From Paenibacillus sp. Root52 (GTDB lineage: Bacteria; Bacillota; Bacilli; Paenibacillales; Paenibacillaceae), in assembly GCF_001426865.1 (NCBI RefSeq), contig NZ_LMFO01000004.1:1-64000 (forward strand): 64,000 bases of DNA, read 5' to 3'. Made by a program: the position numbers and the translations under genes. Each line of letters begins with the position of its first letter. Position 1 is the stretch's first letter. Positions 37,159 through 48,376 of this stretch are shown one piece after another. The notes under the pieces were generated by a model that saw only the letters and a list, made by a program, of their open reading frames with translations, was not told the origin of the DNA and searched no databases.

Positions 37159-37254
37159 GTATATCCTCCCCATAACCGGCTGTATGCCGGGTTTCATGCC
37201 TGAACATCCAACCTATCAACTAATAAATCATTTAATCATTCTATCTATACATGC

Positions 37255-37427
37255 GTGTTCAAAAAGGTCGGTTTTCAGTACCGAGAAAATGGGATGAAGC
37301 TAGAAATGGAGTAGCGGAGCGTAGGCAAAACTACGTGAGCAACGGACATTTCGGCTGAATCCCATATTCGACGCTGAGATGCCGTAAGGCATCCTTCGTA
37401 ATCAAAAGCGGACTTTTTGAACAACTT
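37255..37427 (+). repeat. MITE-like structured repeat, copy A (about 166-bp core 37257-37422)
   Basis: The core begins GTTCAAAAAGGTCGGTTTT and ends CAAAAGCGGACTTTTTGAAC, so the ends are imperfect inverted repeats. Inside are a long imperfect stem (ATGGGAT...ATCCCAT with AGC.GAAATG/CATTTC.GCT) capped by CGTAG-gcaaaa-CTACG, and a separate GATGCC-gtaa-GGCATC hairpin. A second copy lies inverted at 47274-47439, with about 11 differences by eye. It encodes no protein. It lies in the 490-base gap between the U32 gene and the stalk-protein gene. Confidence 0.85.
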
Positions 37428-37584
37428 CTATACATATGTCTGTATTCCCCGATATCCAGGCCTACAGTCATTCTTTCATATCAGATCAGCAGTCATAACT
37501 CCTGAACTAGTATAGTGTAACACTTCTGCACCGACTCTTCTACGCTTTCCTGAAAAAACCGTTTACCATTTTCATACGGAAAAT

Positions 37585-45234: not shown

Positions 45235-47226
45235 CTACTCTGCTCGCAGTTCCAACAATGCGTCACGAAGCTCAGCAGCACGCTCAAACTGCAAGTTTTT
45301 CGCTGCGTCTTTCATCTCTACTTCTAGGCGCTGTATAAGCGACTGACGTTCCTTCTTGGACATCTTCTCTGCAGCACCAGTAAGAAATTCGTTCTTCGAT
45401 TCGGCAACCTTCGTTGCCTCAATCACATCACGTACCTTTTTGCGAATCGTCTGTGGTGTAATGCCATGTTTCTCATTGTAGGCCATCTGGATTTCACGAC
45501 GACGTTCCGTCTCCTTGATCGCCTTATCCATCGAATCCGTCACTTTATCACCATAGAGAATAACTCGACCATCACTGTTCCGCGCTGCGCGTCCAATGGT
45601 TTGAATCAGTGAACGCTCTGAACGAAGGAATCCTTCTTTATCCGCATCCAGAATCGCAACCAACGATACCTCAGGTAGATCCAGACCTTCCCGCAGCAAG
45701 TTGATCCCGATTAAGACATGGAACGTACCAAGCCTTAGATCACGCAGAATCGACATCCGCTCTAGTGTCTTAATCTCGGAGTGAAGATATCGCACCTTAA
45801 TCCCAATCTCTTTCAGATAGTCGGTTAGATCCTCTGACATCTTCTTCGTCAACGTCGTGATTAACACACGTTCGTCTTTGGCAATGCGGTCATTGATCTC
45901 TGCAATCAGATTATCGATCTGTCCCTTCGTTGGGCGCAGCTCGATAATTGGATCAAGTAGACCGGTAGGACGAATAATCTGCTGTACCATCGTATCGGTA
46001 TGCTCAATCTCATATGGCCCTGGCGTAGCCGATACATAGATAATCTGATTCATCTTCTCTTCAAACTCATCGAATTTGAGTGGACGGTTATCAAGCGCAG
46101 ATGGCAGTCGGAATCCGTGTTCAACCAGAACCGTTTTCCTCGCTTGGTCACCGTTATACATTGCGCGAATCTGTGGCAACGTTACGTGAGACTCATCCAC
46201 CACGATCAGCATGTCATCTGGAAAATAATCCATCAGTGTATATGGTGTATCTCCACGTTCACGGAAGGTCAATGGTCCGGAATAGTTCTCGATTCCTGAA
46301 CAGAAGCCAACTTCCTTCATCATTTCAATATCATAACGTGTACGTTGTTCCAGTCGCTGTGCTTCCAACAACTTTCCTTGTTCACGGAGCACTTCAAGAC
46401 GTTCTTCAAGCTCACGTTCGATGTTGACCAAAGCGACCCGCATCGTCTCTTCTTGGGTTACGAAGTGAGATGCTGGGAAGATCGCAATATGTTCACGTTC
46501 TCCTACTAGTTCTCCGGTCAATACATCAATCTCGGTAATCTTCTCAATCTCATCCCCAAACAACTCGACCCGAATCGCATGTTCACCCTTGGAGGCTGGG
46601 AAGATCTCAATGACATCACCACGTACTCGGAACGTACCCCTTACAAAGTTGATATCATTTCGCTGATACTGTATTTCTACCAAACGGGACAAAATCTGAT
46701 TCCGTGGCTTCTCCATACCTACCCGCAGTGACAATAACATGCTGGAGTATGCAGACGGCGAACCCAAACCATAAATGCAGGAAACGCTGGCTACAATGAT
46801 GACATCTCTACGTTCAAATAATGAACTCGTCGCTGCGTGACGCAGTTTGTCAATCTCTTCATTGATGCTGGAATCCTTCTCGATATACGTATCCGAGGAC
46901 GGAATATACGCCTCCGGCTGGAAGTAGTCATAATAGCTGACGAAGTACTCAACCATATTATTAGGAAAGAAATCTTTAAATTCACTCGCAAGCTGAGCTG
47001 CCAACGTTTTATTGTGGGCAATAATCAGCGTTGGACGTTGAAGCTTTGCAATGGTCTGTGCAATGGTAAATGTCTTACCTGTACCGGTTGCACCCAGTAG
47101 TGTCTGATACCTCTTTCCTTCCCGAACACCCTGAACCAATTGTTCAATGGCTACAGGCTGGTCACCTTGGGGAGAAAACTCAGACTCGATTTCGAACGTT
47201 TTGTCGCTCATTACAATATCGCTCAT
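45235..47226 (-). CDS. uvrB: excinuclease ABC subunit B (UvrB)
   Basis: UvrB receives damaged DNA from UvrA, verifies the lesion and recruits UvrC. The 663-residue protein has Walker [11 protein letters not shown] (residues 43-52), the beta-hairpin region [70 protein letters not shown] and [11 protein letters not shown]-terminal UVR domain for UvrC/UvrA contact covers about 625-660 ([24 protein letters not shown]). The start is ATG 47226; a second in-frame ATG six codons in is also possible. The divergent motAB genes lie beyond the upstream repeat element. Confidence 0.97.
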
Positions 47227-47267
47227 TGCCGTATCTCACCCTATCGTCTAAAATAATAGTCACTGTA

Positions 47268-47441
47268 GAGGTTGTTCAAAAAGTCTGCTTTTGATTACGA
47301 TCGATGCCTAGCGGCATCATCAGCTTCGAATATGGAATTCAGCCGAAATGTCCGTTGCTCACGTAGTTTTCCTACGCTCCGCTACTCCATTTCTAGCTTC
47401 ATCCCATCTTCTTGGTACTGAAAACCGACCTTTTTGAACAC
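47268..47441 (-). repeat. MITE-like structured repeat, copy B (about 166-bp core 47274-47439)
   Basis: This is the inverted partner of the element at 37257-37422. Read on the minus strand it starts GTTCAAAAAGGTCGGTTTTC and ends CTTTTTGAAC, with the same core length. Differences from copy A fall largely in loops: the CGTAG/CTACG loop loses one base, the GATGCC/GGCATC loop changes gtaa to gcta, and one stem C becomes T, which still allows G-U pairing. It fills much of the 47227-47578 spacer between divergent uvrB and motA. Confidence 0.85.
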
Positions 47442-47578
47442 ACACTTATATATTGTCGAAGTTCCCCGAATTTTCATATGGGAAAACTTATAGGCATAGG
47501 AATATTTGTTCCCGTTAGATTATACCTCGTTCGTTCAAGTGATGCAAACGTGAAGTGAAGACAGGAGTGGGTTAATTT

Positions 47579-48376
47579 ATGGATATTGCGACACTTATCG
47601 GCATCATTGCCGGGATTGCCGCAGTCATCGGCGGTTTTTTGTGGGAAGGCGGCCAAGTTTCTGGGTTGTTACAAAAAACAGCTGCATTAATTGTATTTGG
47701 TGGAACAATCGCTGCGGTCGTTGCCAGCTTCCCTGCAAACCGGTTACGTACAATTCCGGCTGCACTGCGCATGGCCTTTGGACGCAAAAACAACGAATCA
47801 AGCCAGTGGGTCGAAGAACTGGTGGACATGTCAACCATCGCCCGCCGCTCAGGCGTGCTCGCATTAGAACGTAGAGTAACGGATCACCCTCATCCTTTTT
47901 TAAGAGACGGCATTCAAATGGTTGTGGACGGTACCGATCAAGATGTCATTCGGCAGATCATGGAGATGGAGATTGATTCTGTTGAACAAAAACATGATGG
48001 GTATGCCAAAATTTTTGAAGCTGCTGGTGGTTATGCACCGACCATGGGGATCATAGGTACCGTAATGGGTCTAATTCAAGTACTAGGAAGTCTAACTGAT
48101 CCGACAGGACTTGGCCCTGCCATCGCTGTTGCCTTCACAGCTACTTTATATGGTGTAGCTAGTGCCAATCTAATCTTTTTACCCATCGCTTCCAAGATTA
48201 AATCCCGCGGTGCGGAAGACATACAACTCATGGAAATGATACTTGAAGGTGTACTTGCGATCCAAAATGGGGAGAATCCTCAACTTGTCCGCAAACGCCT
48301 GGAATCATTTACATTAACACATCGCCAGATCACTCAACCTGTACTAAAGGAGGGATTTGATGAGTCGGCGCAGTAA
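47579..48376 (+). CDS. motA: flagellar motor stator protein MotA (MotA/MotP family)
   Basis: A stator ion-channel subunit of 265 residues with four membrane segments (about 3-22, 33-50, 147-170, 182-203). MotA-family features are GGTIAAVVASFP, the cytoplasmic loop rich in charged residues (ALERRV...PFLRDGIQMVVDG) and GGYAPTMGIIGTVMGLIQVL, with the conserved Pro near the third membrane segment. With MotB it forms the H+ or Na+ channel that drives flagellar rotation; ion type cannot be told safely. The ATG follows CAGGAGTGGG. It overlaps motB by 17 bases. Confidence 0.9.
   Translation: MDIATLIGIIAGIAAVIGGFLWEGGQVSGLLQKTAALIVFGGTIAAVVASFPANRLRTIPAALRMAFGRKNNESSQWVEELVDMSTIARRSGVLALERRVTDHPHPFLRDGIQMVVDGTDQDVIRQIMEMEIDSVEQKHDGYAKIFEAAGGYAPTMGIIGTVMGLIQVLGSLTDPTGLGPAIAVAFTATLYGVASANLIFLPIASKIKSRGAEDIQLMEMILEGVLAIQNGENPQLVRKRLESFTLTHRQITQPVLKEGFDESAQ

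What the first reader, a model, noticed from the sequence alone, without database searches (positions are those of the whole stretch)
37255..37427. MITE-like, highly structured 166-bp repeat present as two inverted copies 10 kb apart
The cores at 37257-37422 and 47274-47439 have equal length and differ at about 11 positions by eye. They have imperfect terminal inverted repeats (GTTCAAAAAG...) and two internal hairpins. The differences sit in loops (gtaa to gcta; one base lost in the CGTAG/CTACG loop) or keep pairing (C to T giving G-U), as expected if folding is preserved. No ORF is present. Conservation also extends some bases past the right terminus (GAACAACYTCTA). It could be a MITE, a REP-like element moved by a transposase encoded elsewhere, or a family of small structured RNAs acting as 3'/5' mRNA elements.
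Basis: partly seen in the sequence, partly recalled or inferred. Interest (0 to 1): 0.72.

Follow-up and report, generated by a model that had tools for sequence, protein, structure and literature searches.

The report
Folded mobile repeat in Paenibacillus
A 178-letter non-coding DNA repeat that has inserted itself between genes across Paenibacillus and related bacteria keeps a conserved folded shape, and at fixed sites it appears to exchange one hairpin segment for another.

Summary
The repeat is real and one of many. The true unit is 178 bp (37251-37428 +; 47268-47445 -), with 16-bp imperfect terminal repeats and 5-bp T-W-W-W-A target duplications. The host genome has 45 BLAST matches and 116 right-end matches, 0 in the control. 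The uvrB-side site is cleanly empty in 11 related genomes. So it is a MITE-like mobile element, not a duplicated segment.

It is in 45 of 75 same-genus and 125 of 295 family genomes. Of 83 divergent copies, 77 are 178-181 bp. On 66 aligned copies the fold covaries strongly: 153 doubly changed cells against 42 in shuffles.

After insertion, stem changes break pairs about as often as chance. I infer that the fold is kept in the propagating lineage, probably for mobility.

Least expected: at orthologous sites a 6-bp tip cassette (CGGACA) and a ~45-bp hairpin cassette replace each other while the rest stays orthologous: 25 of 55 pairs differ in length class, one by plain deletion. This was also seen between assemblies of one or two contigs. 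Short-tract gene conversion is the likeliest cause.

No mobilising enzyme found. Closest known: bcr1 of Bacillus cereus.

The parts
37251..37428 (+). copy 1 of the element, short form, 178 bp
37246..37250 (.). left target duplication of copy 1 (TATAC)
   Evidence: the site is element-free in 11 relatives
37429..37433 (.). right target duplication of copy 1 (TATAC)
37343..37348 (+). short cassette CGGACA of copy 1; at the orthologous site G013 has the long hairpin cassette
47268..47445 (-). copy 2 of the element, short form, 178 bp, between uvrB (45235-47226 -) and a motA-like gene (47579-48376 +)
   Evidence: empty sites in 11 genomes
47263..47267 (.). target duplication at the right end of copy 2 (TACAG on the - strand; TATAG in G013 and in the empty sites)
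47446..47450 (.). target duplication at the left end of copy 2 (TATAA on the - strand)
47349..47354 (-). short cassette CGGACA of copy 2

Best explanation
A non-autonomous, MITE-like mobile element of Paenibacillaceae. Shown: a 178-bp unit (GTGCGTGTTCAAAAAG ... CTTTTTGAACAACCTC) lies in A/T-rich sites with a 5-bp duplication (consensus TWWWA), mostly between genes, with clean empty sites in relatives. Shown: across genera its fold is kept by compensatory changes and its length is nearly fixed. Shown in assemblies: at fixed insertion sites a 6-bp tip cassette and a ~45-bp hairpin cassette replace each other while the rest of the element stays orthologous. Inferred: it is moved in trans by a recombinase or transposase that makes the 5-bp duplication and reads the ends and also the fold of a single strand (ssDNA or RNA), so that selection acts on the copies that propagate rather than on each inserted copy. 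Inferred: the cassette changes are short-tract gene conversion between dispersed copies, perhaps started by breaks at extruded hairpins.
For: Copies: 45 BLAST matches, 116 right ends and 60 left ends in the host genome, 0 for the reversed control patterns. TSD: 74 of 158 copies match exactly over 5 bp, random pairing of flanks gives 8.5 on average and 17 at most in 500 trials. Empty sites: 11 genomes at the uvrB site. Fold: 97.7% of cells paired, 17 pairs and 153 cells changed on both sides against 8.4 and 42.3 in shuffles, 0 of 500 shuffles as high; slid structures give 8-32 cells. Lineage rather than site: in 21 orthologous comparisons 20 stem changes keep the pair, 23 break it, 4 are double; the share kept matches random transitions (0.55). 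Cassette: 25 of 55 orthologous pairs differ in length class; outside the cassette discordant pairs differ by 1.5-2.7%, concordant ones by 1.0-2.5%, random copies by 10.5%; also in assemblies of one or two contigs.
Against: No mobilising enzyme or autonomous relative was found: none among paired ends in 1.24 Mb of fetched loci, in loci of two transposase families or in 11 viral-contig loci. Need for the fold in mobility is inferred only. Remnants of 34-60 bp with both ends and nearly no interior exist, some with near-matching duplications, which would fit a terminal-repeat-only mobility, although they may be deletions in place. Close copies show weak covariation: 16 doubly changed cells against 3.1 (short), 3 against 1.2 with shuffles reaching 5 (long). 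Stem sites change less than unpaired ones in place too (0.019 against 0.034), which leaves room for function at the site. The strand is not settled: alifold prefers the + strand (-38.0 against -12.8), but in pairs shared by both strands G.T and A.C changes are 6 against 4. Many discordant pairs are from draft assemblies.
Confidence: 0.65

Rival explanations
1. Ordinary MITE: an internally deleted IS whose terminal repeats alone suffice for movement; the interior fold is a passive remnant.
For: Terminal repeats, 5-bp duplications, no ORF, tiny deleted forms that keep both ends; right terminus like IS1182 termini of relatives (13 of 16 bases).
Against: The whole fold and the length are kept in 66 aligned copies from eight genera with strong covariation. 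No parent IS: the host genome has no PF13751 or PF01609 match.
Confidence: 0.25
2. A structured RNA with a host function (for example in mRNA leaders or as a small RNA) that was spread by mobility and is kept at its sites by selection.
For: Strong covariation and conserved loop motifs; the element diverges half as fast as its flanks at orthologous sites (2.4% against 4.7%); both window copies lie in 5' regions of genes.
Against: Stem changes in place keep pairs no more often than random transitions; no orientation bias among 38 own copies with genes on both sides; empty sites in relatives; no Rfam match.
Confidence: 0.12
3. About the cassette only: the long/short differences come from short-read assembly errors inside repeats, or from tandem insertion followed by collapse, not from gene conversion.
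For: Many of the 55 pairs involve draft assemblies. Tandem copies exist, also mixed long and short.
Against: Same pattern in 5 of 8 sites between assemblies of one or two contigs and one chromosome record (regions chosen partly on hints of a length difference; read type unknown). Sequence on both sides of the cassette stays orthologous.
Confidence: 0.25

Closest known systems
bcr1 repeat of the Bacillus cereus group
   Same: Similar size (167 bp in PMC2267715), conserved stem-loop fold, many intergenic copies, called structurally and functionally MITE-like (PMC3446304), a 5-bp A/T-rich motif TTTAT tied to its mobility and no settled enzyme (PMC6542083); passages only.
IS1182-family insertion sequences (IS1272 type)
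   Same: 16-bp terminus GAGGGTGTCCCAAAAG in relatives matches the right terminus GAGGTTGTTCAAAAAG at 13 of 16 bases (my count).
   Different: IS1272 replaces an inverted repeat and leaves no target duplication (PMC5678879, passages; its place in the IS1182 family is recalled); here 5 bp are duplicated. The host genome has no PF13751 match.
REP/BIME elements with RAYT transposases
   Same: Palindromic, intergenic, high copy number, some tandem arrays.
   Different: 178 bp instead of 20-40 bp (size from the abstract of PMC3733652 in a search listing); target duplications; no RAYT searched.

Membership tests
MITE | Short, non-coding, multi-copy, dispersed | tested here: met
   45 matches in the host genome; 0 of 41 own copies inside an ORF of 100 aa or more with a crude ORF caller
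MITE | Terminal inverted repeats | tested here: met
   16 bp, imperfect: GTGCGTGTTCAAAAAG and GAGGTTGTTCAAAAAG; the inner 10-11 bp match, the outer 5 only partly
MITE | Target site duplication of fixed length | tested here: met
   5 bp: 74 of 158 exact, 8.5 expected by random pairing; 25 of 83 divergent copies
MITE | Empty sites in relatives | tested here: met
   uvrB site: 11 genomes; copy 1 site: 11 genomes lack it, flank more diverged
MITE | Related autonomous element with the same ends | tested here: inconclusive
   None found; only two transposase families were searched in whole genomes
bcr1 | Sequence homology to bcr1 | not tested
   bcr1 sequence not available; source paper not held
bcr1 | TTTAT motif at the ends | tested here: not met
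   Right-flank consensus TWWWA; the commonest are TATAA, TACAA, TAAAA
IS1182-derived MITE | IS1182-like termini | tested here: inconclusive
   13 of 16 bases of the right terminus
IS1182-derived MITE | Insertion without target duplication by inverted-repeat replacement | tested here: not met
   5-bp duplications; mode of IS1272 from PMC5678879 passages
REP/RAYT | 20-40 bp palindrome without target duplication | tested here: not met
   178 bp with 5-bp duplications
Rfam RNA family | Match to a curated covariance model | tested here: not met
   No gathering match in the window; at E up to 5 one hit, outside copy 1, E 4.3

The most novel reading that the evidence does not exclude
The mobile unit is a folded single strand (RNA or ssDNA) and not a DNA element read by its ends alone: an enzyme not yet known in Paenibacillaceae recognises the conserved fold of about 179 nt and inserts it at TWWWA sites with a 5-bp duplication, and optional hairpin modules at its tips are exchanged between copies by a hairpin-triggered conversion process.
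Probability: 0.3. Interest if true: 0.85.

Novelty: new variant of a known kind. Interest (0 to 1): 0.57.

Why it matters
Small bacterial elements of this kind are usually described by their ends, with a free interior (general knowledge). This family keeps a whole fold with base-pair covariation in copies from eight genera, which points to a mobility mechanism that reads structure, and hundreds of natural variants make that testable. Exchange of a hairpin cassette at fixed sites, if confirmed by long reads, gives a natural reporter for short-tract gene conversion near hairpins. For annotation it matters that such repeats sit close upstream of genes such as uvrB.

Tried and rejected
Longer duplicated segment: rejected. 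Possible autonomous element in the P. cellulosilyticus record (955 bp between two ends): two separate remnants around ordinary genes, rejected. IS1182 as direct source: termini alike, insertion mode different. Host selection on the fold at each site: not supported by the kept/broken ratio, though stems change more slowly. Strand argument from G.T against A.C changes: inconclusive. Element as promoter or terminator: consensus scans gave no promoter inside either copy; one weak terminator-like site lies inside copy 1 (37268-37284, - strand) and none inside copy 2. Viral contigs: no copy with a gene between its ends; two environmental contigs (L412, L418) have one exact right end and only a weak partner (3 mismatches) 2.5 kb away, not followed.

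Rows dropped: a first alignment mixed both orientations and was redone with a filter. For one search, 5 of 96 short rows far from the consensus were dropped; the 42 long rows were kept. Of 83 divergent copies, 81 passed a length filter of 172-186 bp; with 2 own copies and a 93% identity filter 70 were left, and 66 of these 70 were given to the alignment used for the pair counts. The divergent copies were best hits of a short-form query, so long forms are under-represented there. In one search, 5 of 55 pairs did not parse.

Papers: searches listed no paper that describes this repeat; they cover only the held open-access library. Passages were seen from PMC10969869, PMC6542083, PMC3446304, PMC5678879 and PMC2267715; no paper was read whole.

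Full report
Observation. Both fold better than all of 200 shuffles. The full unit is 178 bp, because six conserved bases lie outside the GTTCAAAAAG/CTTTTTGAAC repeats on each side. Copy 1 lies between a U32 peptidase gene and a gene with a Cu_amine_oxidN1 domain; copy 2 lies between uvrB and a motA-like gene.

Copies and target sites. The host genome (6.63 Mb, 34 contigs) has 45 BLAST matches to copy 1 (40 of 152 first-look candidates were scored), 116 right-end matches and 60 left-end matches, with none for the reversed control patterns. Copies come as a short form (~178 bp), a long form (~217 bp with an extra hairpin) and remnants of about 34-60 bp that keep both ends. Some copies stand in tandem. 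Among 158 copies from all loci fetched by then, 74 show an exact 5-bp duplication, against 8.5 on average and 17 at most in 500 random pairings of flanks; for 41 copies of the host genome it is 21 against 2.3. These copies include orthologues and tandem copies, so they are not independent. The consensus is T-W-W-W-A, often with C before and G after it.

Insertion history. At the uvrB site 11 genomes have a clean empty site and G013 carries the element. G013 is P. tundrae DS1314 by its contig lengths (my inference). At the copy 1 site 11 genomes lack the element, but the flank on one side is diverged; TATACA is there in 6 of them and TATCTA in 5. With a crude ORF caller none of 41 own copies lies inside an ORF of 100 aa or more; of 38 with genes on both sides, 26 stand between tandem, 6 between convergent and 6 between divergent genes, with no bias of strand.

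Distribution. 45 of 75 genomes of the genus and 125 of 295 sampled genomes of the family match, the latter in 12 of 19 genera. Plasmid records of P. urinalis and P. cellulosilyticus carry diverged copies. With the whole element as query, the plasmid and phage collections gave matches in Paenibacillus records alone (one partial match in a Paenibacillus phage).

Fold. From 54 genomes 83 divergent copies were extracted; 77 are 178-181 bp long and 25 show an exact 5-bp duplication. The query was a short form and ends were sought near the expected places, so unusual lengths are under-represented. On an alignment of 66 copies (64 divergent, 2 own; eight genera by the labels) RNAalifold gives 45 pairs. 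With controls: 97.7% of cells paired (shuffles 91.6), 17 pairs changed on both sides (8.4), 153 such cells (42.3), covariation score 0.211 (0.101); 0 of 500 shuffles reach any of the five measures, and slid structures give 8-32 such cells. All seven helices have a pair changed on both sides. Shuffles do not remove relatedness, as the tool warns; the slid controls keep it, but they favour a structure derived from the alignment. Among close copies the signal is weaker: 16 doubly changed cells against 3.1 (maximum 8) in 91 short copies, 3 against 1.2 (maximum 5) in 42 long ones; single changes keep or break pairs as in shuffles. The apical loops and two bases inside the left repeat are the most variable places.

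Lineage or site. In 21 orthologous comparisons of short copies the element differs by 2.4% and its 150-bp flanks by 4.7%; paired sites change at 0.019 and unpaired at 0.034 per site and comparison. But of 47 changes in stems 20 keep the pair, 23 break it and 4 are double, and random transitions would keep 0.55. I read this as constraint on the copies that propagate, plus some slowing in place that conversion or weak function could explain.

Cassette exchange. Of 55 orthologous pairs in 24 sites (150-bp flanks on both sides), 25 pairs differ in length class. One of these (L120/L039) is a plain deletion. In the others a short cassette (CGGACA in 95 of 158 copies with its neighbouring A) stands against long cassettes of about 45 bp that differ from copy to copy; they fall in 13 sites, in one of which the long cassette did not parse. 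Of the 50 pairs that parse, 8 of 19 with flank divergence up to 5% are discordant. Outside the cassette discordant pairs differ by 1.5-2.7% and concordant ones by 1.0-2.5%, while random copies differ by 10.5%. Neither cassette can come from the other by a simple deletion (from the sequences), so a template elsewhere is needed (inference). In one search, among assemblies of one or two contigs (G011, G016, G022, G023, G066) and the OVF10 chromosome record, 5 of 8 sites and 16 of 33 pairs are discordant; those regions were chosen partly because listed lengths hinted at it, and the read type is unknown. At one site G016 (long) and G023 (short) have flanks 99.0 and 97.3% identical and share the apical loop, but differ in the cassette and at six positions to its right, as a conversion tract would leave them. 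The window's own copy 1 is such a case: short here, long in P. tundrae at the same target.

Mobilising enzyme. Not found. The right terminus is like IS1182 termini of relatives (13 of 16 bases), but IS1272 makes no target duplication (PMC5678879, passages) and the host genome has no match to PF13751 or PF01609. Other transposase families were not searched.

What is known. bcr1 of Bacillus cereus is nearest in kind: similar size, conserved fold, a 5-bp motif, MITE-like behaviour (PMC2267715, PMC6542083, PMC3446304; passages). Homology was not tested. Rfam has no match. Searches of the held library listed no description of this repeat.

Verdict. A real and widespread structured MITE-like family. 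That it is mobile is close to certain. That its fold serves mobility is the best-supported reading, but inferred. The cassette exchange in place is the least expected result and needs long-read confirmation.

Noticed in passing
L414 2297-2625; L421 470-721 (viral contigs): Copies enlarged by further hairpin modules at other tips (329 and 252 bp), as if hairpin cassettes were modular.
   Followed up: no
L411, L413, L416, L417, L419 (viral contigs): Long-form copies with the same flanking sequence in five viral contigs, which by eye vary most inside the cassette.
   Followed up: partly
L016 (tandem pair), L042, L403, L393, L396: Tandem copies separated by a short spacer like the target duplication, also mixed long and short.
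   Followed up: partly
L067 6003: A remnant of about 35 bp lies in the loop of an inverted repeat (ATCTCCCATA..TTATGGGAGAT) downstream of a gene.
   Followed up: no
L215 1045-3271: An IS1182 copy in a relative is flanked by ..CAAAAATAG and TTTTTTTG.., as if it sat in a palindrome, fitting the reported inverted-repeat-replacing insertion.
   Followed up: no
whole host genome G000: No match to DDE_Tnp_1 (PF01609) or DDE_Tnp_1_6 (PF13751), although 13 and 11 of 22 genomes in these searches have matches.
   Followed up: no
window 37268-37284 (-): A weak terminator-like stem followed by CCTTTTT lies inside copy 1.
   Followed up: no
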